Assembly (NCBI GenBank): GCA_031281585.1
Contig: JAITFE010000054.1
Coordinates: 1-32,505 of the forward strand
Reading direction: 5' to 3'
Source of the DNA: Bifidobacteriaceae bacterium
GTDB taxonomy: Bacteria > Actinomycetota > Actinomycetes > Actinomycetales > WQXJ01
DNA length: 32,505 bases
Part shown: piece after piece, positions 5,592-19,299 of the stretch
How positions within the stretch are numbered: the stretch's first letter is position 1
How the letters are laid out: every line of letters starts with the position of its first letter
Made by a program: the position numbers and the translations under genes
The notes under the pieces: model-generated
The model's input: only the letters and a program-made list of their open reading frames with translations
The model's database searches: none
Told to the model about the DNA's origin: nothing

Positions 5592-5734
5592 ACCACAAAG
5601 TCGTGGTCGATCTGGGCGGGTGCCACCCCGAACTTAGCTGCCCATTGTTCCCGCTCACGATGCGCTAAAGCGCCGGTCGCTTCGACGGCGCGGCCGACCC
5701 TTGCTGCGCGTTCTATGCGGCCATCCTCAAACAC
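5592..5734 (-). pseudogene. AbiEii-like toxin, proximal part (first 48 codons)
   Basis: A GTG at 5734, 8 bases before the end of the antitoxin frame and preceded by a purine-rich GGAGAGGGGAGGAG, opens a frame that reads through EREQWAAKFGVAPAQIDHDFVV. The last segment is the family's usual N-terminal motif, normally followed by SHVLAAL. Here it breaks at 5592, where the insert begins, and then runs into PRGCRR and a nearby stop. The missing continuation SHVSAAIS is at 1131 and below. Without excision the product would be a short N-terminal peptide lacking the catalytic motifs. Confidence 0.85.
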
Positions 5735-6389
5735 CGCCGACTCCTCCCCTCTCCCGCAGCCAGATGCGCATCCTTGCGGCCGCCGCCTTGGGCAACGCCG
5801 TGGTAACAGTTTGCAGCCGCTCAGGGTCGACACGGGGAAGCAGGGCCACGGCCGCCGCGCGAGCTTCAGCGGACATGCCGCCCAGGTCCGGGCGCAGGGC
5901 CAAATCGACCATCGTCTGCTCGACCGTGGCCACCCTCATCACGCCCAGCCCGCCTTCCACGAGAACCGCACGGATCTTGGCTGCGTCTCGCACGGTGAAC
6001 ACGATCCTCCCCCCGGTGGCCAGGGTCACAGGTCGGTGTTGCTCAGGTACTGCGATCACACTTGCCCCAATCGCGCGGGGTATAGCCCCCCAGTGACGCG
6101 CCGCGCCAATTCCTGCCAGCACGGGGACTCGATCACCATAGGCTGCGGTCGCATAGGCCATCGCCGCCTCCTCGAGCGTGGGTTTCCAGGCCGTATGGAG
6201 GCCAACGGTGTCCGGCTTCGCCACGTACGTGCCATGGGCGATCCGGACCACCAATCCCCGTGCGTGAAGACGCACCAATTCCTTCTCCGGGTTCACATAG
6301 ATTCCCCGCAGCATTACTGGCCTTACCGTTCGCATGGGCGCACGGGCGATGGCGAGCGGCAATCGCCCCGCCCGCATTGTTGCATTCAT
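5727..6389 (-). CDS. AbiEi-like antitoxin / winged-helix transcriptional repressor
   Basis: This 220-residue protein matches AbiEi antitoxins of type IV toxin-antitoxin systems. The N-terminal winged-helix region has PEKELVRLHARGLVVRIAHG and TYV. A central domain follows with PTLEEAAMAYATAAYG, AARHWGAIPRAIG and GGRIVFTVRD, then a C-terminal TVEQTMVDLALRPDLGG segment. In the family it represses its own operon and counteracts the toxin without direct contact. ATG at 6389 is preferred over the far upstream ATG at 6482 because the domain begins there and a large palindrome overlaps it. The stop overlaps the toxin GTG by 8 bases. The frame is intact although its toxin is broken, so it may persist as a regulator. 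Confidence 0.83.
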   Translation of the reverse strand: MNATMRAGRLPLAIARAPMRTVRPVMLRGIYVNPEKELVRLHARGLVVRIAHGTYVAKPDTVGLHTAWKPTLEEAAMAYATAAYGDRVPVLAGIGAARHWGAIPRAIGASVIAVPEQHRPVTLATGGRIVFTVRDAAKIRAVLVEGGLGVMRVATVEQTMVDLALRPDLGGMSAEARAAAVALLPRVDPERLQTVTTALPKAAAARMRIWLRERGGVGGV

Positions 6390-6426
6390 ATGCACAACAC
6401 TACCTATAAGGGAGTGTTGTGCATAT
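6388..6426. promoter_or_regulatory. Probable AbiEi operator: 14-bp perfect inverted repeat
   Basis: ATATGCACAACACT at 6388-6401 is mirrored exactly by AGTGTTGTGCATAT at 6413-6426, across an 11-base spacer. On the minus strand the spacer contains TATAGG, a fair -10 hexamer, which would place the transcription start some 7 bases before the antitoxin ATG at 6389. AbiEi proteins are known to bind inverted repeats over their own promoter, so negative autoregulation is the natural reading. Alone, the hairpin has no T-tract and is not a terminator. Confidence 0.75.
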
Positions 6427-6496
6427 CCCCGTCGCGGTGTTGGTTCGAGGGAGCTTCGGTCGGTGTCGAAGTGATGGTCCATGTGGTCTGGTCTGT

Positions 6497-6751: not shown

Positions 6752-7137
6752 AAGCCGTGCTGGACACCCATGTGGTCCTGTGGTCCCAGCGCGACTCGCA
6801 GTTGCTGTCCCGCACGGCCCAAACGATTCTGGCCGACCTGGACACCGAATTGCTGCTCTCGTCGGTGGTGCCCTGGGAGTTGAGCGTCAAGGAGCGGACC
6901 GGCAAGTTGCCCCAGGCGCGCCCGCTGCTCGCCGACTTCGCCCAGGTCAGATCAAACTTGGGCAGCGTGGCGCTGCCCATCGCCGACGAGCACGCGCTGC
7001 TGGCTGGCTCGCTGGACTGGCCTCACAAGGATCCGTTCGACCGCATGCTGGCCGCGCAGGCCATCCTGGCCGGGGCGGCGCTCGTCAGCGCCGACCCGAC
7101 CTTCGACACGCTGACCGGCCTCGCCCGGATTTGGTGA
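6748..7137 (+). CDS. PIN-domain toxin (VapC-like ribonuclease)
   Basis: This 129-residue protein is a complete PIN domain. The acidic metal-binding set is visible: D6 in LDTHVVLW, E44 in PWELSVKE, D98 in DPFDRMLAAQA and D116 in LVSADPTFD. VapC toxins cleave RNA, often tRNA, when the antitoxin is degraded. GTG at 6748 overlaps the antitoxin stop, so translation is coupled. Length and motifs are those of functional members, and the Phd-type partner supports a working module. The RNA target cannot be read from the sequence. Confidence 0.9.
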   Translation: MKAVLDTHVVLWSQRDSQLLSRTAQTILADLDTELLLSSVVPWELSVKERTGKLPQARPLLADFAQVRSNLGSVALPIADEHALLAGSLDWPHKDPFDRMLAAQAILAGAALVSADPTFDTLTGLARIW

Positions 7138-7156
7138 CACCGATAACGCGCCGCTT

Positions 7157-7211
7157 GCCGGTTCCCGGAGGCCTTCACGGAAAGTGCCGTGAGGCCTGCG
7201 GGGGAACCGGC
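7157..7211. terminator. Large nested hairpin between convergent genes
   Basis: GCCGGTTCCC at 7157-7166 pairs with GGGAACCGGC at 7202-7211. An inner stem pairs AGGCCT(T)CACGG with CCGTGAGGCCT. It sits between the toxin stop (7137, plus) and the permease stop (7216, minus), so it could end transcription from both sides. It lacks a T-tract. Confidence 0.5.
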
Positions 7212-7215
7212 TCGT

Positions 7216-8109
7216 TCACGGGCGGGCCGCCTGCGAGGAGTTGGCGGGGACCCGTTGGCGGCGGGCGAGCAGATGGGCCAGCACGCCCTGGCGGGGCGAG
7301 AACAGCCAGGCGGCCAAGAACACGGCGGTGAGGACAAGCACAATGGTTCCGCCGGTCGGGAAGTCCCACGACCAGGAGACGTAGAGGCCCACCAGGGCGG
7401 ACAGGGCACCAATCGACGGGGCCAGCAGCATCATGACCCCCAAGCGGTCGGTCAGCAGGCGGGCGGTGGCGGCCGGGGTGACCAGCAGCGCCAGCACCAG
7501 GATGTTCCCGATGGTCTGCACGCTGATCACCACCGCCAGGGTGACCAGCACATACAGCGCCAAGTCGAGCCAGAACACGCGCAAGCCGAGCGCGCGGGCG
7601 GACTCGCGGTCCAGCGACACCGTCACGAACTCCTTGTGCAGCAAGAACACGGCGAGCAGCACAATCAGGCCGGTGCCGCCCACCACGTACAGGTCGGAGG
7701 TGGGAATGCCGGTGATGGACCCGAACAAGAACTGTTGAAGGCTTCCCGCGTAACCCGGCGCCTGGGAGATCACCACCACGCCCAGCGCGAAAGCGGCCAC
7801 GAACAGGATCCCGATGACGGAGTCCTCTTTCAGCCGCCGGTTTTGCGAGAACACCGCCACCAGGATCGCGGTCGCGACACCCGCGACCGAGCCCCCAATC
7901 ACCAGGTTCCCGCCGGCCACGAACGCGACGGCGAGCCCTGGGAAGACGGCGTGGGCGACGGCATCGCCGATAAAGGCCATTCCGCGCAACACCACGTAGG
8001 AGCCGACAACGCCGCACACGACCGAGGACATCACAGCCACCGCGAGCGCCTTCGGCAGGAACGCCAAGTCCGGGTTGAGCAAATCAGCCAGGAAATCTAT
8101 TGGGCTCAC
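7216..8109 (-). CDS. Anchored-repeat-type ABC transporter, permease subunit (ZnuB-like)
   Basis: This 297-residue integral membrane protein of the ABC-3 (ZnuB/MntB) family has about eight hydrophobic helices. It begins SPIDFLADLLNP and contains VVLRGMAFIGDAVAHAVFPG and GSITGIPTSDL. A DRESARALGL loop, which in relatives contacts the ATPase, follows, and then TIGNILVLALLVTPAATARLL. It should form the membrane channel for a divalent metal, zinc or manganese. GTG at 8109 overlaps the ATPase stop (GTGA), which decides the start; the frame is open further upstream inside the ATPase gene. It is the last gene of the operon. Confidence 0.88.
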   Translation of the reverse strand: MSPIDFLADLLNPDLAFLPKALAVAVMSSVVCGVVGSYVVLRGMAFIGDAVAHAVFPGLAVAFVAGGNLVIGGSVAGVATAILVAVFSQNRRLKEDSVIGILFVAAFALGVVVISQAPGYAGSLQQFLFGSITGIPTSDLYVVGGTGLIVLLAVFLLHKEFVTVSLDRESARALGLRVFWLDLALYVLVTLAVVISVQTIGNILVLALLVTPAATARLLTDRLGVMMLLAPSIGALSALVGLYVSWSWDFPTGGTIVLVLTAVFLAAWLFSPRQGVLAHLLARRQRVPANSSQAARP

Positions 8110-8876
8110 GACGCGGCCGCCTGAAGCATCCGCAACAGCGCCGAATCCGGCCCCACGCCGAACGTGGACGCCCACGCGTCAGGCCGGGCCACCAGCGGGC
8201 CGGGGGCACCCGCGGCGACCACGGTCTGGTTGAGCAGCGCGATCCGGTCCGCGCCGTCGATGGCGCCCAACAGGTCATGCGTGGTGGTGAGCACGGCCCG
8301 ACCCTCATGGGCGATGTCCGCGAACAGCGCCCCGAGCAACTCCTGGGTGGGCATGTCCAGGCCCGCCAGCGGCTCGTCGAGCAACAAAACCGCAGGCCGT
8401 AGGGCCAGCGCGCGGGCAACCAGGACCCGCTGCCGTTGCCCGCCGGAGAGTTGCCCCACCGGGCGGTCCGCCAGGTCGGCCAGGCGGACCCGGTCCAACG
8501 CGTCCGCCACCGCCTCCCATTCGGCCGCGCCGGGCCGCCGAAACAGGCCAAGCTTTCCGGCCAGGCCGGTGGCGACCACGTCCGCCACGCTGATGGGGAA
8601 TTCCCAGGCGAACTCGTGCCGCTGCGGGACGTACCCCACCGCCGCCCGCCCCGGCTTGGCGGGACGCCCCTCCACCAGCACGCGGCCCTGGGCGGAGCGC
8701 TGCAAACCGAGGATCGCGCGCAACAGGGTGGTCTTCCCGGCCCCGTTTGGGCCGATCAACGCCACGATTTCGCCCCGGTCCACGGCCAGGTCCACATCCC
8801 GCAGCACCCGCCGGCCGCCCAAGTCGACGGCCAGGCCCCGCACCACCAGGGCCCGGTCGGGCCGCGAATCGGTCAC
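8106..8876 (-). CDS. Anchored-repeat-type ABC transporter, ATP-binding subunit (ZnuC-like)
   Basis: This 256-residue ATPase has Walker A GPNGAGKTT, a Q-loop in YVPQRHEF, the signature LSGGQRQR, Walker B AVLLLDEPLAGLD and a switch histidine in TTHDLLG. Length and the EFAWEFPISVADVV segment are those of metal-type (ZnuC/MntA) ATPases. It powers uptake with the permease encoded next. GTG at 8876 overlaps the stop of the preceding surface protein gene (GTGA), so the three genes are translationally coupled. The much longer open frame upstream is not used. Confidence 0.9.
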   Translation of the reverse strand: MTDSRPDRALVVRGLAVDLGGRRVLRDVDLAVDRGEIVALIGPNGAGKTTLLRAILGLQRSAQGRVLVEGRPAKPGRAAVGYVPQRHEFAWEFPISVADVVATGLAGKLGLFRRPGAAEWEAVADALDRVRLADLADRPVGQLSGGQRQRVLVARALALRPAVLLLDEPLAGLDMPTQELLGALFADIAHEGRAVLTTTHDLLGAIDGADRIALLNQTVVAAGAPGPLVARPDAWASTFGVGPDSALLRMLQAAAS

Positions 8877-9970
8877 GGCCGCACGCCCGCGCCCGGCGCG
8901 GCGCCGTCCGGACCGCCGCCGACGCCGTCCGCCCCAGCGGCCGCGCGGGCGGCCAGGACGCGTTGTTTGGCCCGTCTGCCCCGGATGATGGCCGCGCCGA
9001 AGACCGCCACAAGGACCACCGCCACCAGCGCGATCGCGCCTATCAAGATGGGCACAAGCGGATCGCCGCCAGCCGCCGGCGCGGCCGCCGCAGTCGCAGT
9101 CGCGGCGGGGCCGGTCTGCTCCGCCCCGGCGGCGCCCGCCTGGGCGGAAGCCGCCGCCGCGCCGCCCCATTCGGCGGCCAGGGCGTCAGCGGGCGCGGTG
9201 TCGCTGCCCACGGCGAAGCGGACGAGTTGCGTGTCGGCGACGGAGGTGCCGTCAATCAGGTCGGCGGAGGCCTCAAGTTCCACCAGGTAGACGCCGGGCT
9301 CGGTAAACGCCCAGTTGGCATGCGTGTGGGTGTTCACGTCAACCCACAGCGGCTGCGGCTCGGCCACGCGCGAATCCCACAGGAGTTGCGGCTCGCCGAA
9401 GCTGCCCGATTGGAGGAACACGGTCATGACGCCGGGCCCCTGGACGCCAAGCAGGGTCAGGGTGACGCCGCGGTCGAGTTGTTCCATGACCTCGGGGTCC
9501 TGGGTGTTCCAGCCGACCCACACAACGTCCGGATTCTGCGTCTGGGGGGACACCCACACGCCCTGCCCCGGCTCGGCGCCCAGGAAAGAGTAGGCCGGGT
9601 CTTCGGGGGCGGGAAGCTGGCTTTCGTCGAACAGGTGGAAAACAGTCTCCGCCGGGTAACGCCACACGCTGGTGGCGTTGGCGTCGGCTTTGGCGACGTC
9701 ATCGTGAATGAGGAACTTCCACTTCCCGTCAACGAACCGGGGGCCCATGTCAACGTGCCCGGCGGTGAGCACGCGTTCGCCGTGCACCACGGCCGCGCCC
9801 GCGGACAGGGTTTGATCCAGGTTCGGATCTTCCTCGCCTTCCGCGAACGCCGGAGCGAGCCCCGGCCCCGACCCAAGCCCCAGCCCCGGCCAAGCGAGAA
9901 ACGTCAGCGCCAATGCGCCCGCCAACCCCGCCACCAGCAACGTCTTCTTCATGCGCTCCATCAATTCCAT
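8873..9970 (-). CDS. Actinobacterial surface-anchored repeat protein, single domain
   Basis: This 365-residue exported protein has a signal peptide (basic MKK, hydrophobic core, cleavage near AFAEG). One copy of the actinobacterial surface-anchored repeat domain covers about residues 60-255. A C-terminal Ala-rich linker is followed by a transmembrane helix (PLVPILIGAIALVAVVLVAV) and a basic tail. Domain hallmarks are LTAGHVDMG, YSFLGAEPG, VWVSPQTQNPDVVWVGWNTQ, GPG, HTHANWAFTEPGVY and FAVG. The His-rich HTHAN motif suggests metal binding (inference). There is no LPXTG, so it is membrane-anchored. It likely works with the ABC transporter genes it overlaps. The start could instead be the ATG at 9952. 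Confidence 0.85.
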   Translation of the reverse strand: MELMERMKKTLLVAGLAGALALTFLAWPGLGLGSGPGLAPAFAEGEEDPNLDQTLSAGAAVVHGERVLTAGHVDMGPRFVDGKWKFLIHDDVAKADANATSVWRYPAETVFHLFDESQLPAPEDPAYSFLGAEPGQGVWVSPQTQNPDVVWVGWNTQDPEVMEQLDRGVTLTLLGVQGPGVMTVFLQSGSFGEPQLLWDSRVAEPQPLWVDVNTHTHANWAFTEPGVYLVELEASADLIDGTSVADTQLVRFAVGSDTAPADALAAEWGGAAAASAQAGAAGAEQTGPAATATAAAAPAAGGDPLVPILIGAIALVAVVLVAVFGAAIIRGRRAKQRVLAARAAAGADGVGGGPDGAAPGAGVRP

Positions 9971-9986: not shown

Positions 9987-11564
9987 TCAGCCGGCCGCCA
10001 GGCACTCCCGCAACGAGTCGGCGTTGAACCGCATCATCTGGGTGTAGCTGGTGACCGTGTTGGAAAATGTGTCGCCGTAGATGGGGCAGACGGCAACGTC
10101 CTGCTCGGCGGCGACTTCGACAAGGGTGGACGACCGGGCGGCCAAGTTGGGCTCCAGGAACACCGCGGGCACGCCCAGGGACCGGATCGTTTCGGTCAGC
10201 TTGCGCCGGTCCGCCAGCGACGGCTCGGCCGCCGGGTTCGGGGTCACGAATCCGGCCACCACCAGGCCGTACGCGTTGGCCAGGTACCCGAACGCGTCAT
10301 GGGTGGTGACCAGGTAGCGGTCCTCCGGCGGGATCTCGGCGATGACGTCCCGCACGTAGCCGTCCGTGGCCTCCAATTCCGCCAAGTAGGCGTTGGCGTT
10401 GGCGGCGTAGTCGCGGGCGTGCGCTGGGTCCACCCCGATCAGCGTGTCGCGGATCAACTGCGCGTACGCCATCGCGTTGCGCGCGTCCTGCCACAGGTGC
10501 GGGTCGATCTCCCCGTGCACATGTTTGCCAAGCACCGCCTGAGCCAACTGGTACACCTGGTCGCCCGCGTGTCCCAGGAAGGAGTACTGCGAGCCGGGAG
10601 GGATTTCCTCCAGCGCCTTCGCTGGCACTTCGATCACCACTTGGTCCGGCGAGTAGGCCGATTGCGTGTGCTCGCCGCCCCCGTCCGGGTCGTAGCGGAC
10701 CTCGAGCGCCTCCGAATCCAGGTTCGCCGTCAAGTCCGCATGGCCCTTGCCGAGGATCACCGGGTCGGCGATCCCGGCCTGGCGGGCGGCCTCCGCGGGG
10801 TTCACCCCCACCGCGAACGTGTACACGGCCTGCCCCAGGGCGATCGGCTTGGAAGTGCCGTCCACCTGGAGCTTCGCCCGCAGGGTGATGGCGTAGACCC
10901 CGGCTTTGGTGAACGCCCACGTCAAGTGCGTGTGCGCGTCCGCCGGCAACGACATGGTGTCCGCCTTATACCCGTTCGCGGCGTCGAATCCGTCCGAGGA
11001 GTCGAAGTACACGTCCGTGTCCCCGAAGCTCCCGGTCAGGTACGCGAAAACGTCGCCCGGACCGGTCGCGTCCACGGCGGACAGCAGTACCTCGGAGGTG
11101 CGGGTCGCACCGAAGCGCCCCCCGTCCCCCTGCGCCCGCAGTCCCAGCCAGATGGTGTCCAGGGTGACGTCCTCCACCAGCGGGATGATCTCGGCCGCGT
11201 ACTTGACGGACTCCTCCGCCAGGGACACCGACACGGCGTCCTCCGCCAGGTTCGCGTCAAGGGTTTTGATGACCGACTGCTCTTCCAACATTGCGTAGTT
11301 GGAGAACGCCACGTCCGCGTAAACCACGTTCCGCGCGTCCCGCAGCGTGGGCTCATAGGTGTGCGGGTCGCCGCCCGCCGGCACCAGCGAAACCACCTGC
11401 ACCAGGTCGCCGCCCACGTGCCGCACCAGGTCGCCCAAGATCCCGGTGGTGGTGACCACCCGCACTTGGTCCGTTTCCGCGTCTAACATCGGCTTCGCGG
11501 TGCAGCCGGTCAACAACAGCACGCCGCCGATGCCGACCGCCACCCCCGCCCGAAACCCCCTCAT
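9987..11564 (-). CDS. Anchored-repeat ABC transporter substrate-binding lipoprotein (ZnuA-like with inserted domain)
   Basis: This 525-residue lipoprotein has signal peptide LLLTG followed by C21. The ZnuA/cluster-9 fold is split. The N-lobe has VTTTGILGDLVRHVGGD and H68 in GGDPHTYEP. The second histidine region, HGEIDPHLWQDARN, lies near residue 350, and later FLEPNL and YGDTFSN supply the remaining ligand positions. Between them, roughly residues 125-345, sits a surface-anchored repeat domain in permuted order. The GPG/HTHLTWAF/FAVG half comes first, and the GKGHADL/YSFLGHAG half comes second. ATG at 11564 follows GGGGGA and starts right at the signal peptide. It should deliver Zn or Mn to the transporter encoded downstream. 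Confidence 0.88.
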   Translation of the reverse strand: MRGFRAGVAVGIGGVLLLTGCTAKPMLDAETDQVRVVTTTGILGDLVRHVGGDLVQVVSLVPAGGDPHTYEPTLRDARNVVYADVAFSNYAMLEEQSVIKTLDANLAEDAVSVSLAEESVKYAAEIIPLVEDVTLDTIWLGLRAQGDGGRFGATRTSEVLLSAVDATGPGDVFAYLTGSFGDTDVYFDSSDGFDAANGYKADTMSLPADAHTHLTWAFTKAGVYAITLRAKLQVDGTSKPIALGQAVYTFAVGVNPAEAARQAGIADPVILGKGHADLTANLDSEALEVRYDPDGGGEHTQSAYSPDQVVIEVPAKALEEIPPGSQYSFLGHAGDQVYQLAQAVLGKHVHGEIDPHLWQDARNAMAYAQLIRDTLIGVDPAHARDYAANANAYLAELEATDGYVRDVIAEIPPEDRYLVTTHDAFGYLANAYGLVVAGFVTPNPAAEPSLADRRKLTETIRSLGVPAVFLEPNLAARSSTLVEVAAEQDVAVCPIYGDTFSNTVTSYTQMMRFNADSLRECLAAG

Positions 11565-11646: not shown

Positions 11647-14600
11647 TCACCCGCGCCTCCGGCTCCTGCCGCGCCGCCACAGCAAGCCGCCCCCAACGGC
11701 ACCCACCGCCAGCAGGCCGCCCAGGATGGACAGCAGCAGCGGCACTCGGTCATCCCCGTTCGCGGCGGGCGCGGCGGCCGTGTCGGCCGGGTCTTCCCGC
11801 ACGTCGGAGCCCTGGCCGGACCGCGTCTCGCGGGACTCTTCGACTGCGGCCTGGTCGGCTGGCTCCTCGGGCGCCTCGACGGCATCGGACAACAAGGCCG
11901 CGTTGGAGATGGCGCCGCACCCCGAACCGTTGCCGGCCGCGGAGGCCGGGTCGACGTCGCCGACTGCGATTGTCAACGTCTCCGTGTCGGACGAGGTCTG
12001 GCCGTTCGCCAGCGTGACGGTCTGCGTCATGTTCAGGCGGTAGATGCCCTGGGCGGAAAAGGCCCAATTGGCGTGCGCGTGGACGCCGAGCGGGATGTCG
12101 TAGCCGCCGCCCGAGCCCGCGAACACTGTCTGCTGCACCCCGCCGAACGCCCCCGAGAGGTAGACCTTGACCGAACCGGGCCCGCTGACGCTGTTCAGCG
12201 TCCACGTCACCGACCCGCGCGCGTTGCCGGCGTTCAACGCCTCCGTGGACCAGCCCAGCCAAACCAGGTCCGGGTTCTGCGTCTGCGGCACCTGCCAGAC
12301 CCGCGCCCCGGCGGCCCCGACCGATTCGTATCCGGGCGGAAGGGTCACCAAACTGGACGGCTTCAGCCACAGGATCACGCCGGAGGGCTGCCGGTAGACC
12401 TTCGACCCGGAGGTGTCGTCGCCGATCAGCGACTCAAGCTTGCCGGACACAATCCTGGAGGCGTAGTCGATGTGCCCGGCGGACAGGATGGTGGCCCCGC
12501 CCACGCAACCGGACGCCTTGACGGTCTTCGAGGCCGGGACGCTTCCCCCGCCGGCGCCGCCCGTGTCCGGCGGCGGCGGGCTCCCGGGCTGCGCGTCCTG
12601 GCCGGTCTGCCGGCCGCAGTTGGCCGGGTCGACCTGCATCACGTCCGCCGTGCCCACGGCCACCGCCAGGGTGAACGCGTCCGAACTGGTCGCCCCGGAG
12701 GCCAATTGAGCGGTCCGCCACATCGACAGGCAGTAGTTCCCCGGCGCGGAAAACGCCCACGAGCCGTGCGCGTGCGTGTTCTTCGGAATGGTGAACCGGT
12801 CCGCCGCCGTGACGCCGTCGCGCGTGTTGAACAGCACGTCAGGCTGCCCGAACGAGTCCGTCACGTACAGCGCGAACTCGCCCGGCCCCGTGACGCCCGC
12901 GAGGCTCCAGGCCACGCCGCCCGTGGTCGCGCTCACCGCGATCGCCTCCGTGGACCAGCCCGGCCAGAGCAACCCCGGCTGCTGCACCTGCGTCACCTGG
13001 TACACCGAGGACCCGGCCGCGCCGAGGAAGCTGTACGCGCTGAAGGGCGGAACCACCGTCCTCGAATCCGGCCGCAGTTGCAGCACGGTCTTGGCCGGGT
13101 CGCGCCACACCGGGTCGCTTGACCGGGTGGTGTCCTTCACCTTGGTGACGAGCGCCCCGCCTTGGATGAGCGACGCGATGTCGACATGCCCGTCGTTGAG
13201 CACCGTGGCGCCCGCAGCGTTGACCGTCCCGTTCGGCACGTCCCACACCGCCCCGGGCTGCTGGGGGCCGCCGCCTCCTTGGCCGCCGTTGTTACCCCCT
13301 TCTCCGCCGATGCCGTCTTCACCGCCGCCATCGCCGCCGTTCGGGTCGTCGCCGATCCCGTCTTCACCGCCATTGCCGCCGTCCGGGCCGCCGGGCTGGG
13401 AACCTGGATCGTCGCCGGTCTCGTCCGGCTCTTGGAAGCACCGGGACGGGTCGAGGCCCATCACGTCAGCCTGGCCAACGGCCACCGCCAAAACGAAATC
13501 GTTGGAAACCGAGGCGCCGCCGGCCAACGTGGCCGCGCGGGTGAACCGCAGACAGTAGCCGCCAGGCGCGGAGAATGCCCACGAGCCGTGCGCGTGCGTG
13601 TTCTTCGGGATGGTGAACAGGTCCGCGCCGTTGATCCCGTCGCGCGTGTTGAAGAGCACGTTCGGCTGCCCGAACGCGCCCGTCTCATACAGGGCGAACT
13701 CGCCCGGCCCCGCGACCTGCGTCAACGCCCAGTCGACCCCGCCCTGGGTGGCCGTCAACGGGATAGATTCCGTGGACCAGCCCGGCCAGAGCAACCCGGC
13801 CTGCTGGGTTTGCGAAACCTGGTAGATGTCGGCCCCGGCCGTCCCGAGGAACGACCACTGCGCGCCCTCCGGCACCGCGATCCGCGAACCCGGCCCCAGT
13901 TGCAGCACGGTCTTGCCCGTGTCCCGCCACACCGGGTCTCCAGAGCCTGTGGTGTCTTTGACCTTTGTGACCAGGGAGCCGCCCTCCAGCAGCGAGGCTA
14001 TGTCCACATGCCCGTTGTTCAGCACAACCGCCCCGGCCTGGTTGACCGTGCCGTTCGGCACATCCCAGACCGCGTCCGGCGGACCGTCGCCCTCGCCCGG
14101 CCCGCCTTGGCCGCCCGAGCCTTCCTCGTTCCCCGGCCCGGGCTGACCGCCCGGCCCGTCCTCGTCACCGCCGGAACCGCCGCCGTCGCCCGGCTCGCTG
14201 CCGCCGCCACCGCCGCCGGGGCCGCTGCTGTCGCCTGGTTGGTCGGCATCGTCGGTGGTTTGGAAGCACTGCGCCGGGTCGATCTTCTTCACGTCGACCT
14301 GGCCGACTGCGACCGCGAGCGTGAACTCGTGGGAGGCCGCCGCGCCGGACGCGAGCACAGTGGACCGCTCGAAGCCCAGGCAGTATGCGCCCTCGGCGCT
14401 GAATGCCCAAGTCCCGTGGGCGTGGACGGCCTTCGGGATTGCAAAACTGTCTGCGGCGGTGATTCCGTCGCGGGTGTTGAAGCGCACAATGGAGGCCCCG
14501 AGGTGGGCCGGATCCAGGGTGTAAAGGGCGAACTCGCCGGGGCCGGACGCCTTCTTCAAGGTCCATTCGACCCCGGTCTGCGTCGCCTCTGGGGGGATCG

Positions 14601-17160
14601 CCTCCGTGGACCACCCCGGCCACAGCAGCCCGTCTTGCTGGGTTTCCTCGACCTGCCACAGCGGGTCTCCAGGGCTGCCGAGGAAGGAGAACCCCGCCAG
14701 TTCCGGCACCGCGGTCTGGGAATCAGGCAGGAGTTGGAACACAACATCCTCCGGCGCGTGCCAGGAGGCGCCGTCTTTGGTGGCGTGCGCCGCCCCTTCC
14801 ACGGTGGTGTCTTTGATCTGCGTGTTCAAACGCCCGCTTTCCAGCAGCGAGGCCACGTCAACGTGACCCAGGTTCAGGATTGTCGCGCCCGAATCGGTCT
14901 GAGCCCAGTTGTCCACCTGCCAGGCCGGGGTCTGGGGCTGGCCCGGTTCTTGGCCTTCCCCGGGGCCAGTCTCGCTTGACGGGCGGGTCCATGAGTCTGG
15001 GTCTTGGACGCACGTTGCGTCAAGTGCGCCATGATCCGCCCCAGACCAAGTGGCCCCTTGGTAGCTGTAGCCGGTCGAGTAATTGCCGCTGTAATCCGAA
15101 GGGTCCAGCGGCCCATCGACCACCAGCGTCAAGACCCGGTCCTCCACAATGGGGCGCTCCCCATTGACAAATGTCCACGTGGCAGACACGCAGTACTTGC
15201 CGGGCGCCGTCACGCGGAAACTGGGGCCAAGGGTGGACGAGCCAGCGGCGAAGGTCAGGCTGCTAGTTGCCGGAGTTGAACTGTTGAGAGGGGGCCACGT
15301 GGTGGGGCTTCCGGTTTCGATCACCAGATCACCCGGACCGTTCACCCGTGTCACATCAAGACGAATGAGTCCCTCGCTAGCGGGCAGGGAAGCCGCATGC
15401 ATATCCAAATCGAACACCTTCGACAATTCCCCACTTGTCATTCGCCCCACCAGATAGGGCAGTTCGCCCAGTTGCCGATGGAGGATGACGTCCTCGAAGA
15501 CGTATCTGGTTGGCAGCGCGTCATGCCGTGCGGTGTGGCGGTCCAAGAACACGTCCACGGCCGATGGACCAGATGGTCCAAGCGAGATATCGACTTTCCC
15601 CGAATCGATCACAACCGGAGCCGCGGCCTCGGCCACCGGAAGCGAATGGGCTGGCGGCTCAGGAAGCGGCAGCGTTCTCCCGCAGGGAGTGACCGTCCTG
15701 GGGTCGACTTCGGAGCCGACCGCCATTGTCAACCAGCCGCGGCTTTCTTCCACGCCGCCGGGCAACTCCGCGACCACGGCCGCCGCGAGGCAATACACGC
15801 CCGGCGCCGTGAACGACCAGTTGGTGTGGCCGTGTTGACCAACGAATGTGTTGTAGAACAGCCCCGGAACGCCGCCTTCCTTGGTGCTGAAGGTGATGAC
15901 CGGCGAACCTGTAGAACCACCGCTCCATCTGACGAAGTCACCCGGCGCGGCGGAGCCGTTGGCGCCGGTCACCGCGTCAATCCGGAAACCGAAAATCGTC
16001 GCGTTCCTGGGCAATGACGCAAATGATTCGTCCTGGGTCGAAGCGCCGATCCACGGTGCGGCGGCGTTGTTGACCTGGGGACTGTTCCAGATGGTTGCGC
16101 CCGGTTCCCCCAAGAAGGAGTAATCGGCCCCTGGGCTGTTGACCGCCGGAAGCGTCATCTTGATGTCGTCCGGGTGGTGGACAACCAAGTCGTCCAAGGC
16201 GACAGTGCCAACGCGGTCAATGTGAGCCTTGAGGGTGAGCCCTTCCTGGCGCTCGGGGTCCTCAAGAACGGGATAGAGCACGTCAGCGTGCCCTTTGCGC
16301 AGAATTGTGATTCCCGGCGGGTCGAGGTCCGGTTCAGGCTCCGGCTCGGGTTCGGGTTCGGGTTCCGGGTCAGTGTCGGGCGCCGTGGCGCCGGTGCCGC
16401 AGGCGGCGTTGGCCGGGACTTCGTCGCCGACCGCGAATTTGAGTGTCCGGCTGGTTGTGGTTGGTTCGGTGGCTTGTTCCAGGTAGAAGCTGAAGTTGTA
16501 GGTCACGCAGTACATGCCGGGTGCGGTGAAGCGGTGCACCAGGTCGATCATCCGCTGCATCGCGGTCGCGTTGGCCGGTATTGTCCAGGGGGCTGGGGTT
16601 CCTTGTGGTTCGCCAGTCGCCGTTTTGCCTGTCCCGGTTTTGAATTGATTGGCGTCACTGCGGGGTGAACTGGTCAGTGAGCTTCCGCTGGTGCCCATCC
16701 GGTACATGGCGTATGAGCCCCCCTCTGGGCTGATGGTGCCGTCGAGTGAGATGGTTAGCGTTCGGTCTGGTGCGTGGCCTATTCCTCTGACGATGTTTGG
16801 GTCGATCACGAACTGTAGTGACAGCGCGGTTTCTGAGTTGGCGAACCGAGCGCTGGTCCAGGCCTGGCTGCCGACGGCCCCCAGCCACGCGAAGGCCTCT
16901 CCGTCCGGGAGCGTTGAGCGTCGTGAGTCGTTTATGCGGTACACCAGGTTGTCTGTGTTGTGTTCGATCAGCTCGGTCGTGGCACCGACCTCGCCGGGTA
17001 CCACGCGGAGATACTGTGCGCCCTCTCCGACCTCCACCACCGGCTCCGGCTCTGAGCCGCCCTCCTCCGCGTGCGCTGGCGCCGCGCCCATGGACAGGGA
17101 TCCGGCCAGGACAAGAACAGCTGTCAGGATGGCGGCGGAAGCGTGGCGCGGGGAGGACAC
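11647..17160 (-). CDS. Giant membrane-anchored surface repeat protein
   Basis: This 1837-residue exported protein belongs to the anchored-repeat, ABC-transporter-associated family. It has a signal peptide ending PAHAEE, a divergent N-terminal unit, then six repeat domains. Units 3-6 are typical (GHVDIASL, SFLG, QTQQ-GLLWPGWSTE, GPGEFALY, HAHGSWAFSAPG-YCL, VAVG), while units 1-2 have drifted and unit 2 lacks several motifs. Linkers are PE-repeat (about residue 275) or Gly/Asp-rich. The end is a transmembrane helix (VPLLLSILGGLLAVGAVGGG) with a WRRGRSRRRG tail. Cysteines recur at the YC and D-P-x-x-C positions, hinting at one disulfide per unit. GTG at 17160 follows AGAGG. It may capture metal or extend the uptake system across the wall (inference). 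Confidence 0.88.
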   Translation of the reverse strand: MSSPRHASAAILTAVLVLAGSLSMGAAPAHAEEGGSEPEPVVEVGEGAQYLRVVPGEVGATTELIEHNTDNLVYRINDSRRSTLPDGEAFAWLGAVGSQAWTSARFANSETALSLQFVIDPNIVRGIGHAPDRTLTISLDGTISPEGGSYAMYRMGTSGSSLTSSPRSDANQFKTGTGKTATGEPQGTPAPWTIPANATAMQRMIDLVHRFTAPGMYCVTYNFSFYLEQATEPTTTSRTLKFAVGDEVPANAACGTGATAPDTDPEPEPEPEPEPEPDLDPPGITILRKGHADVLYPVLEDPERQEGLTLKAHIDRVGTVALDDLVVHHPDDIKMTLPAVNSPGADYSFLGEPGATIWNSPQVNNAAAPWIGASTQDESFASLPRNATIFGFRIDAVTGANGSAAPGDFVRWSGGSTGSPVITFSTKEGGVPGLFYNTFVGQHGHTNWSFTAPGVYCLAAAVVAELPGGVEESRGWLTMAVGSEVDPRTVTPCGRTLPLPEPPAHSLPVAEAAAPVVIDSGKVDISLGPSGPSAVDVFLDRHTARHDALPTRYVFEDVILHRQLGELPYLVGRMTSGELSKVFDLDMHAASLPASEGLIRLDVTRVNGPGDLVIETGSPTTWPPLNSSTPATSSLTFAAGSSTLGPSFRVTAPGKYCVSATWTFVNGERPIVEDRVLTLVVDGPLDPSDYSGNYSTGYSYQGATWSGADHGALDATCVQDPDSWTRPSSETGPGEGQEPGQPQTPAWQVDNWAQTDSGATILNLGHVDVASLLESGRLNTQIKDTTVEGAAHATKDGASWHAPEDVVFQLLPDSQTAVPELAGFSFLGSPGDPLWQVEETQQDGLLWPGWSTEAIPPEATQTGVEWTLKKASGPGEFALYTLDPAHLGASIVRFNTRDGITAADSFAIPKAVHAHGTWAFSAEGAYCLGFERSTVLASGAAASHEFTLAVAVGQVDVKKIDPAQCFQTTDDADQPGDSSGPGGGGGGSEPGDGGGSGGDEDGPGGQPGPGNEEGSGGQGGPGEGDGPPDAVWDVPNGTVNQAGAVVLNNGHVDIASLLEGGSLVTKVKDTTGSGDPVWRDTGKTVLQLGPGSRIAVPEGAQWSFLGTAGADIYQVSQTQQAGLLWPGWSTESIPLTATQGGVDWALTQVAGPGEFALYETGAFGQPNVLFNTRDGINGADLFTIPKNTHAHGSWAFSAPGGYCLRFTRAATLAGGASVSNDFVLAVAVGQADVMGLDPSRCFQEPDETGDDPGSQPGGPDGGNGGEDGIGDDPNGGDGGGEDGIGGEGGNNGGQGGGGPQQPGAVWDVPNGTVNAAGATVLNDGHVDIASLIQGGALVTKVKDTTRSSDPVWRDPAKTVLQLRPDSRTVVPPFSAYSFLGAAGSSVYQVTQVQQPGLLWPGWSTEAIAVSATTGGVAWSLAGVTGPGEFALYVTDSFGQPDVLFNTRDGVTAADRFTIPKNTHAHGSWAFSAPGNYCLSMWRTAQLASGATSSDAFTLAVAVGTADVMQVDPANCGRQTGQDAQPGSPPPPDTGGAGGGSVPASKTVKASGCVGGATILSAGHIDYASRIVSGKLESLIGDDTSGSKVYRQPSGVILWLKPSSLVTLPPGYESVGAAGARVWQVPQTQNPDLVWLGWSTEALNAGNARGSVTWTLNSVSGPGSVKVYLSGAFGGVQQTVFAGSGGGYDIPLGVHAHANWAFSAQGIYRLNMTQTVTLANGQTSSDTETLTIAVGDVDPASAAGNGSGCGAISNAALLSDAVEAPEEPADQAAVEESRETRSGQGSDVREDPADTAAAPAANGDDRVPLLLSILGGLLAVGAVGGGLLWRRGRSRRRG
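11943..14890 (-). repeat. Tandem surface-repeat domain DNA, about 0.8-kb pitch
   Basis: Four similar units occupy about 14890-14266, 14034-13438, 13213-12618 and 12497-11943. The middle two are closest: AGCCGTGCGCGTGCGTGTTC and a nearby GTCGCGCGTGTTGAA are shared exactly. The Gly-rich linkers between them differ in length. This suggests duplication of a whole domain plus linker, with later linker drift. Confidence 0.8.
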
Positions 17161-17275
17161 AGTAGGAGCCTCTTTCGTTGTCAGGTGGTTTTCGGAAACC
17201 GGAGTAGAGCCACGTGACGGACCTGGGAACTCGTGGTACCGCGAGCCGCCGGCAATCCGGCCGCGAGGCCTCTAT

Positions 17276-17296
17276 TAGGAACGATTATGGTTCTTA
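17276..17296. promoter_or_regulatory. Fur/Zur-like palindromic operator candidate
   Basis: The half-site TAnGAACnAT is mirrored as ATnGTTCnTA around a central T at 17286. Its 7-1-7 core GAACGATTATGGTTC is the form used by Fur-family repressors. It lies just downstream of the promoter of the surface-protein/metal-transporter operon, where bound repressor would block initiation. Zur is the natural candidate because the operon is of ZnuABC type. The exact bases differ from Zur consensus sites I know, so the identity of the regulator is inference. Confidence 0.5.
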
Positions 17297-17302
17297 CACG
17301 AA

Positions 17303-17331
17303 ATCATGCTCACCCCGCTCCAACCTGTCAA
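17303..17331 (-). promoter_or_regulatory. Sigma-70-like promoter of the anchored-repeat operon
   Basis: On the minus strand a perfect TTGACA (17331-17326) is followed after 17 bases by CATGAT (17308-17303), 4 of 6 matches to the -10 consensus. Transcription would start near 17296, inside the palindrome, leaving a leader of about 135 bases before the GTG at 17160. Confidence 0.55.
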
Positions 17332-17536: not shown

Positions 17537-18874
17537 TCAGACACGTGCCTTGCGCTCCCACGCCGCGCCGTGGAACCGGATTGCGAACGCCACCGAGCGG
17601 ACCCCCCATTCGGCGACCTGGACCGCCCACACTCCGACCACCCCGTAGCCGAGCGCCACTCCCACAATCCAGATCGCCGCCACTCGCAGCACCATCGTCA
17701 CGCTTGCGACCGTCGTGGTGAAGACAGCGTCGCCAGCCGCCCTCAAGCCCGACGGCAGCAGGTACGAGCCCGCCCACCAGAACAGCAAGCGCGCCGCAGA
17801 CGCGAGCAAGAAGATCGCCAGCACATCGCGGCGAATCGCATCTGGTGTGTTGTAGAGCCCCTCTAGCCAGCCGAACACCGCCAGCATTGCGGCCGCCGCG
17901 GCGACTGAGACCCCAGTCGAAGCCACAAGAAAAGACCGTATGAGCCTGCGGGCGTCATCCAGGCGACCCGCTCCGACGGCCTGCCCCACGATCGGCACCA
18001 ACGCCAAGCACATGGCCTGCGGAACGATCTCGCTGAGGCTGATCAACGACTGCGCCACCGCGTTAGCCGTGATCGCGGGGGTGCCCATGCCCACCACGAA
18101 CGTCTGCGTGACCAGCTTGCCGCCGCTGAAGAACAACGCCTCCGCGGCGAACGGGATCCCCAGCAGGATCACCCGGCGGGCGGCGGCCCAGCCTGGCCGC
18201 CAAAGGACGCGGAGCCTCGAACCAGCGCCGGCCAGCAACGGGGACTTGACCAGCAGAAGCACGGCCAAGACCGCCGACAGGTAACGCGCGGCGACGATGG
18301 CGACCGCGAGGCCCGCCACGCCAAGCCCCAGGCACCGCACCAAGACCAGCGCGGCAAGAAGGTAGCCGCCGTTCATCGCCACTGTCAGCCACAAGGCCGG
18401 CACGGTGCGCGCCGCGCCGCGCAGCGCCGCGGACACCGCCTCGACCAGCGCCTGCGCGGGATAGGCTGCCGCGAGACCCACCAGGTACACGCGGGCGAAC
18501 CCGACGGCATCGTCGCCCGCCGGGCCGAGCAAGGCCTGCGCGACCGGGCCGCTCGACGCGGCCAGCGCCGCCCCGACCGCCAACGCGGGCAAGACCGAGA
18601 CCGCGAGCGTCGCGCCGCATGCCTGCGCCACGCCGGTGGCGCCGTCGCGGGTCCCGCGCCCCAGGTCCTGGGCGACAATGATCGAGCCTGCGGTCGCGAG
18701 CGCCAGGAACACGCCCACCAGGAAGACGTTGAGGTACTCCACCGTGCTGACCGCGCTGATCGCCGCCGGGCCCGCGTCCGCAACAAGCATCGGGCTCAGT
18801 GCCGAAAAGCCGATGATGAACGCCTGGCTGACGACCACTGGGACCAACAAGGCGCCCACGGTCCGGGCGCTCAT
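17537..18874 (-). CDS. MATE-family multidrug/metabolite exporter
   Basis: This roughly 445-residue membrane protein has twelve predicted helices in two related halves, the pattern of MATE transporters, which export drugs or metabolites in exchange for H+ or Na+. Features include SAVSTVEYLNVFLVGVFLALATAGS in the first half and GIPFAAEALFFSGGKLVTQTFV opening the second. The paired loops are RGTRDGATGVAQ and GAGRLDDARRLIRSF. The frame is open back to 19204, but that 110-residue extension is Arg/Pro-rich and unlike the family. I place the start at ATG 18874 (MSARTVGALLVPVVV); a TTG at 18892 is an alternative. The substrate is unknown. It runs alone. Confidence 0.85.
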   Translation of the reverse strand: MSARTVGALLVPVVVSQAFIIGFSALSPMLVADAGPAAISAVSTVEYLNVFLVGVFLALATAGSIIVAQDLGRGTRDGATGVAQACGATLAVSVLPALAVGAALAASSGPVAQALLGPAGDDAVGFARVYLVGLAAAYPAQALVEAVSAALRGAARTVPALWLTVAMNGGYLLAALVLVRCLGLGVAGLAVAIVAARYLSAVLAVLLLVKSPLLAGAGSRLRVLWRPGWAAARRVILLGIPFAAEALFFSGGKLVTQTFVVGMGTPAITANAVAQSLISLSEIVPQAMCLALVPIVGQAVGAGRLDDARRLIRSFLVASTGVSVAAAAAMLAVFGWLEGLYNTPDAIRRDVLAIFLLASAARLLFWWAGSYLLPSGLRAAGDAVFTTTVASVTMVLRVAAIWIVGVALGYGVVGVWAVQVAEWGVRSVAFAIRFHGAAWERKARV

Positions 18875-19299
18875 CTGCGATGTCGCAAACAAGCGGTGAG
18901 CGACCCGTGCGGCGGACGGACTGCGGTGCCGCGGCGCCGGCGTGGCGCTCACGGGCGACCGCGCCGGGCGGCGGCGCCATCCGACGTGGCACCGCGGCCC
19001 AGCGGCAGCGGTCGGGTGCCCCTCGCGGCGCGGTCCAGCGGCAGGCTGCCGCTCGAACCCGCTGTGCCCCCTGTCACGCTCTGGCCGAGCGCCGCCGCAA
19101 CGGCGCGGTCTCGCCGGAGCGTGTGAATTGACAGACCTGCGCCCCAGCGCCACATCGGGAATCCCTTCGCGATCATTAACGGTCAAGAAAACTCGCGGGA
19201 TCATTGTAGAGCGTCACTACGGCGCTAAGAATGCTCGTAAATGGACGTACATGATCGTTTCGAGACGGGTTACCGGGTCCTCCACGGCACCAGCGGGGA
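18875..19299. other. Upstream region of the MATE gene
   Basis: No gene is supported here. The minus frame runs on from the MATE start without codon bias. TACAAT near 19207-19212 on the minus strand could be a -10 element; I see no good -35. Confidence 0.3.

What the first reader, a model, noticed from the sequence alone, without database searches (positions are those of the whole stretch)
17276..17331. Strong promoter overlapped by a Fur-family-like palindrome
TTGACA-17-CATGAT is followed at once by a symmetrical 7-1-7 element. This places all five genes of the anchored-repeat operon under probable metal-dependent repression and supports zinc (or manganese) as the transported ion.
Basis: inference. 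Interest (0 to 1): 0.55.

Follow-up and report, generated by a model that had tools for sequence, protein, structure and literature searches.

The report
Zinc-repressor site before zinc-uptake operon
A short mirror-image DNA site next to a promoter is very probably where the bacterium's zinc-sensing repressor (Zur) binds to switch off a five-gene zinc-capture and import operon when zinc is plentiful, a control already shown for the same kind of operon in a related bacterium.

Summary
On the minus strand TTGACA-17-CATGAT (17331-17303) is followed 9 nt later by GAACGATTATGGTTC (17279-17293; 6 of 7 pairs; 8 of 10 in the 21-mer 17276-17296). It lies over the predicted transcription start rather than over the promoter hexamers. 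A matrix built from five other sites of the same genome scores it 23.0; the next place in the window scores 10.4. In the own genome the core motif (up to 1 mismatch) occurs at nine places against none for a reversed control. Six stand at znuABC-zur, this operon and other anchored-repeat surface-protein loci; three lie inside other ORFs. The genome has a Zur whose best solved relatives are Streptomyces coelicolor and Mycobacterium tuberculosis Zur; its only other Fur-family protein is PerR-like, beside a catalase. The five genes are the anchored-repeat metal ABC system; the receptor has His-His-His-Asp ligands, favouring zinc over manganese. Of 80 related loci, 57 carry such a site against a mean of 1.2 for permuted matrices. 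The homologous Corynebacterium diphtheriae znu locus is published as Zur-repressed. A well-supported, ordinary new member of a known kind.

The parts
17326..17331 (-). -35 hexamer TTGACA
17303..17308 (-). -10 hexamer CATGAT (4 of 6), 17-nt spacer
17276..17296 (.). Zur box, 21-bp (10-1-10) pseudo-palindrome TAGGAACGATTATGGTTCTTA; core 7-1-7 at 17279-17293; over the predicted transcription start
17161..17296 (-). predicted 5' leader of about 136 nt; AAAGAGG ribosome-binding-like stretch before GTG; no unusual fold (z -0.6)
11647..17160 (-). gene 1: TIGR03773/choice-of-anchor M surface protein, 1837 aa, five GHxD...HxH pairs, C-terminal membrane segment and basic tail, no LPxTG seen in the tail
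9987..11564 (-). gene 2: TIGR03772 lipoprotein substrate-binding protein, ZnuA domain split by an inserted segment, ligands His-His-His-Asp (start chosen at lipoprotein signal)
8873..9970 (-). gene 3: choice-of-anchor M membrane protein (ZnuE-like), one HxD/HxH pair
8106..8876 (-). gene 4: TIGR03771 ATP-binding subunit (overlaps gene 3 by 4 nt)
7216..8109 (-). gene 5: TIGR03770 permease (overlaps gene 4 by 4 nt)

Best explanation
The palindrome is a Zur box. When zinc is sufficient, the zinc-loaded Zur dimer (gene on contig C67 beside znuABC) binds the 21-bp site laid over the transcription start and stops RNA polymerase from starting the five-gene anchored-repeat zinc-uptake operon. When zinc is scarce Zur lets go, and the cell makes the surface zinc-binding repeat protein, the split-domain lipoprotein receptor, a ZnuE-like membrane protein and the ABC importer. 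Shown here: the site, its recurrence at zinc genes, the presence of Zur, the gene families and the operon layout. Inferred: Zur binding, repression, the transcription start and zinc as the cargo.
For: Own genome: the core AAYGATNATCRTT (up to 1 mismatch) occurs at nine places, reversed control 0. One (exact) is at znuA in the znuABC-zur cluster; four stand at other anchored-repeat loci (C67:36010, C131 and C60 by their own downstream gene, C35 by 88% identity of its flank to C67); one is this site. TTGACA lies 32-43 nt before the box at four of these (39 here). The window site scores 23.0 on a matrix that excluded it. Among 80 named related loci, 57 have a site of score 16 or more and 42 have one near a family gene start; 100 permuted palindromic matrices give means 1.2 and 0.4, maxima 9 and 5; by genus label 25 of 32 and 19 of 32. 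Zur protein: best solved relatives 3mwm (E 1.5e-34) and 2o03 (E 3.1e-32). Receptor ligands H33, H321, H387, D463. Literature: actinobacterial Zur sites are 21-bp palindromes with a 1-bp centre (PMC2823685, passages); the C. diphtheriae troA/znu locus is zinc- and Zur-repressed, with Zur gel shifts (PMC6711530, passages; PMC12445094, abstract, passages and two sections).
Against: No binding or expression data for this organism. The site is the least exact of the six: one inner pair of its palindrome is broken (ATGGTTC instead of ATCATTC type). 23 of 80 related loci lack a site of score 16 or more, some of them short contigs; of the eight family-level MAG loci only one passes, and three others have best scores of only 11.6-13.9. 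C35 ends shortly after its box, so its target gene is not seen.
Confidence: 0.9

Rival explanations
1. Another metal repressor binds it: the second Fur-family protein (PerR-like, contig C100) or a manganese or iron regulator of the DtxR/MntR type.
For: A second Fur-family gene exists, and the palindrome is Fur-like in general form. C. glutamicum Zur bound its site in vitro with zinc or manganese (PMC2823685 passage), so metal choice in vitro is not absolute.
Against: The second protein matches PerR models best and adjoins a catalase gene; no site above 7.7 lies in the 4 kb around it. The box recurs at znuABC-zur. The DtxR box recalled from memory aligns poorly (about 9 of 19 letters by eye; DtxR and MntR genes were not searched for).
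Confidence: 0.05
2. Chance palindrome beside a fortuitous promoter.
For: A loose pattern search in the window alone gives no excess, and the promoter scan finds 1 against 0.6 expected.
Against: Matrix score 23.0 against 10.4 for the next place in the window, expected 2.7e-4 per window at 66% G+C; recurrence at the same gene families.
Confidence: 0.03
3. Zur activates rather than represses this promoter, as reported for zitB of Streptomyces coelicolor.
For: Zur can activate in actinobacteria (PMC6103462 passages).
Against: The activating box lies upstream of the -35; here it lies downstream of the -10, over the start. The operon encodes uptake, and its homologue is repressed.
Confidence: 0.02

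Closest known systems
znu locus of Corynebacterium diphtheriae (znuAECB and znuFG; troA, dip0438-dip0445)
   Same: Anchored-repeat substrate-binding protein, ZnuE-like protein, ATPase and permease in the same order; HxD/HxH domains; reversed HxH-HxD order inside the binding protein (HTH at 212 before GHAD at 275; reversal reported in PMC12445094); Zur box at the promoter with zinc repression shown there (PMC6711530).
   Different: Here the large surface protein comes first and one promoter precedes all five genes; in C. diphtheriae the transporter genes come first and the surface proteins have a second zinc-repressed promoter inside the permease gene. The surface protein here has five HxD/HxH pairs; ZnuF has two and CmrA2 three.
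Actinobacterial Zur box (21-bp, 10-1-10; S. coelicolor 7-1-7 TGAAAATGATTTTCA, PMC2823685)
   Same: Odd-length palindrome with a single central base; A+T-rich ATGATTATCAT-like core shared by the other sites of this genome.
   Different: In this genome the arms read GAAC/GTTC-like rather than TGAA/TTCA, and the window copy has two broken pairs of ten.
znuABC-zur cluster of the same genome (contig C67)
   Same: Exact core box AATGATTATCATT; zinc ABC transporter families.
   Different: Ordinary ZnuA without the anchored-repeat insert and no surface protein in the cluster; no TTGACA at 32-43 nt before the box.

Membership tests
Zur-regulated promoter (actinobacterial Zur box) | 21-bp odd-centred palindrome matching the genome's other Zur-box candidates | tested here: met
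   Score 23.0 on a matrix without this site; next best in window 10.4
Zur-regulated promoter (actinobacterial Zur box) | Same motif at znuABC/zur in the genome | tested here: met
   C67:24138-24150 exact
Zur-regulated promoter (actinobacterial Zur box) | A Zur protein in the genome | tested here: met
   P0001, best solved relatives 3mwm and 2o03
Zur-regulated promoter (actinobacterial Zur box) | Box within or just after the promoter, as for a repressor | tested here: met
   Starts 6-9 nt after the predicted -10; the promoter itself is predicted only
Zur-regulated promoter (actinobacterial Zur box) | Zur binds the site and zinc lowers transcription | not testable with these tools
   Needs gel shift or footprint and expression data
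Zur regulon with zinc-free ribosomal paralogues | Second copies of L31/L33/L28 under a Zur box | tested here: not met
   One copy each, no site; assembly 95% complete
Anchored-repeat ABC transporter (TIGR03770-TIGR03773) | All four curated models above cut-off in one cluster | tested here: met
   836 vs 190, 723 vs 350, 319 vs 269, 465 vs 297 bits
Zinc (rather than manganese) cluster A-I binding protein | His rather than Glu at the third metal ligand (rule recalled) | tested here: met
   H387 aligns with the Glu of MntA/PsaA-type chains; invariant in 7 of 7 sequences
Zinc (rather than manganese) cluster A-I binding protein | Measured metal preference | not testable with these tools
   Needs binding assay

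The most novel reading that the evidence does not exclude
Across most actinobacterial genera that carry it, the anchored-repeat system is a Zur-controlled zinc-gathering apparatus of the cell surface. In this lineage one repressor would switch on, at once, at least four loci with repeat-bearing surface proteins plus their importer, so that zinc starvation remodels the envelope into a zinc trap. Two nearly identical promoter regions (C35, C67) may also drive a small uncharacterised ORF of about 95 codons.
Probability: 0.5. Interest if true: 0.4.

Novelty: new member of a known kind. Interest (0 to 1): 0.28.

Why it matters
It ties a widespread but mostly unstudied family of actinobacterial surface proteins (anchored-repeat / choice-of-anchor M) to zinc starvation outside Corynebacterium, with a testable operator in a lineage seen here through metagenome assemblies. 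The mechanism itself, Zur repression of an anchored-repeat znu locus, is already in print.

Tried and rejected
Rejected: a leader RNA element (fold of 17161-17297 no better than shuffles, z -0.6). Rejected: the second Fur-family protein as regulator. Rejected: ribosomal paralogues as further regulon members. Rejected as operators: motif matches on C5, C16 and C87, which lie inside long ORFs. A first query for the Zur protein used a wrong frame and found nothing; repeated with the right frame. A first greedy gene call on the 80 loci missed some family genes and was replaced; counts come. The gene calls remain crude: 76 of 106 sites lie outside predicted genes, which cover 85% of the sequence. 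The printed list was cut in the middle; the counts do not depend on the printout. The 95-codon ORF before the C67 surface protein has no Pfam match.

Full report
What is there. The site is on the minus strand. TTGACA (17331-17326), 17 nt, CATGAT (17308-17303), then after 9 nt GAACCATAATCGTTC read on that strand, that is GAACGATTATGGTTC at 17279-17293 on the plus strand. Six of seven arm pairs match; widened to 21 bp (17276-17296), 8 of 10. The predicted transcription start, about 7 nt after the -10, falls at the edge of the box, so the box covers roughly +1 to +20. 'Strong promoter' is generous: the -35 is perfect, the -10 is 4 of 6, and the scan expects 0.6 such sites per 10 kb by chance.

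More than chance. Within the window alone a loose palindrome pattern is unremarkable. The weight comes from elsewhere. The core AAYGATNATCRTT with at most one mismatch is found at nine places in the 3.98-Mb genome, and the same pattern read backwards at none. A matrix built from five of them, leaving the window site out, gives the window site 23.0; the second best place in the window scores 10.4. The expected number of places scoring 23 or more in a window this long is 2.7e-4 at 66% G+C and 0.009 at 50% G+C (the window is 67% G+C).

The company it keeps. One exact site is at znuA of a znuA-znuC-znuB-zur cluster on contig C67. C131 and C60 have a site before genes for TIGR03773/choice-of-anchor M surface proteins; the C67:36010 site precedes such a gene by about 530 nt, with a short ORF between. 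The C35 site lies near a contig end; its flank is 88% identical over 425 bp to the C67:36010 region, so its target is inferred. The three remaining places (C5, C16, C87) are inside ORFs and are set aside. TTGACA stands 39, 43, 43 and 32 nt before the box core in the window, C35, C67:36010 and C131; the znuA and C60 sites lack it at that distance.

The regulator. The genome has two Fur-family genes. The one beside znuB matches the solved Zur of Streptomyces coelicolor (3mwm, E 1.5e-34) and of M. tuberculosis (2o03, E 3.1e-32) and shows the CxxC pairs and HHHH stretch in the alignment. The other matches PerR models best and adjoins a catalase gene, with no comparable site in 4 kb around it.

The operon. 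Five genes follow on the minus strand: a 1837-residue TIGR03773 surface protein with five GHxD...HxH pairs, a TIGR03772 lipoprotein receptor, a choice-of-anchor M membrane protein, a TIGR03771 ATPase and a TIGR03770 permease. Gaps are 82 and 16 nt, then two 4-nt overlaps, which fits one transcript. The receptor's ligands are H33, H321, H387 and D463 in the aligned fragment, invariant in seven of seven sequences; the third aligns with the glutamate of manganese-binding MntA and of a manganese lipoprotein chain. From general knowledge of these receptors (recalled), His there goes with zinc, Glu with manganese.

Conservation. The 80 best of 551 related loci in named genomes were scanned. A site of score 16 or more is in 57 of 80, and in 42 of 80 one lies between 300 nt before and 100 nt after a predicted start of a family gene; 100 permuted palindromic matrices average 1.2 and 0.4, with maxima 9 and 5. 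By genus label: 25 of 32 and 19 of 32. The window's genus holds MAGs labelled Bifidobacteriaceae bacterium (one contig of 107557 bases is shared by same-genus genome G008 and record JAISXH010000022.1). Among the eight loci with that label only one passes; three others reach 11.6-13.9 at best, near the operon or receptor gene, so the box is weaker or differs in the closest kin.

What is known. The C. glutamicum Zur regulon paper (PMC2823685; passages read) describes the actinobacterial Zur box as a 21-bp palindrome with one central base and lists the C. diphtheriae troA-dip0442 operon and cmrA among predicted targets. PMC6711530 (passages) shows zinc and Zur repression of that anchored-repeat cluster and Zur gel shifts at predicted sites, troA among the probes. 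PMC12445094 (abstract, passages, sections 5 and 12) names it znuAECB/znuFG, reports HxD/HxH motifs in its surface proteins and the reversed motif order in the receptor, as seen here. A library search for the family names gave five papers (listing only); by title only the C. diphtheriae one treats zinc regulation.

Verdict. Observation confirmed with small corrections; interpretation supported, with zinc and Zur favoured. The mechanism is already known for a homologue, so this is a new member of a known kind. Binding, repression and cargo are inferred, not shown.

Noticed in passing
L065:16943-17354 (G000:C67) and L069:4079-4503 (G000:C35): Two promoter regions with Zur boxes and 425 bp of 88% identical flank share a short ORF (about 95 codons, some His-rich stretches) without Pfam match; its coding status is unclear.
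   Followed up: partly
window 5727-6482 (-): AbiEi_1 antitoxin-domain protein (E 3e-7) downstream of the operon; an AbiE-like toxin-antitoxin pair or remnant may lie here.
   Followed up: no
window 17537-19204 (-): MATE-family efflux transporter gene upstream of the operon in the same direction, 376 nt from it.
   Followed up: no
window 7100-7215 (-): Long G+C-rich inverted repeat after the permease stop codon, without a T run; possible end of the operon transcript.
   Followed up: no
window 11647-11800 (-): Tail of the 1837-aa surface protein has a membrane segment and basic end but no LPxTG by eye, like C. diphtheriae ZnuF, which reaches the cell wall without known sortases (PMC12445094).
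   Followed up: no
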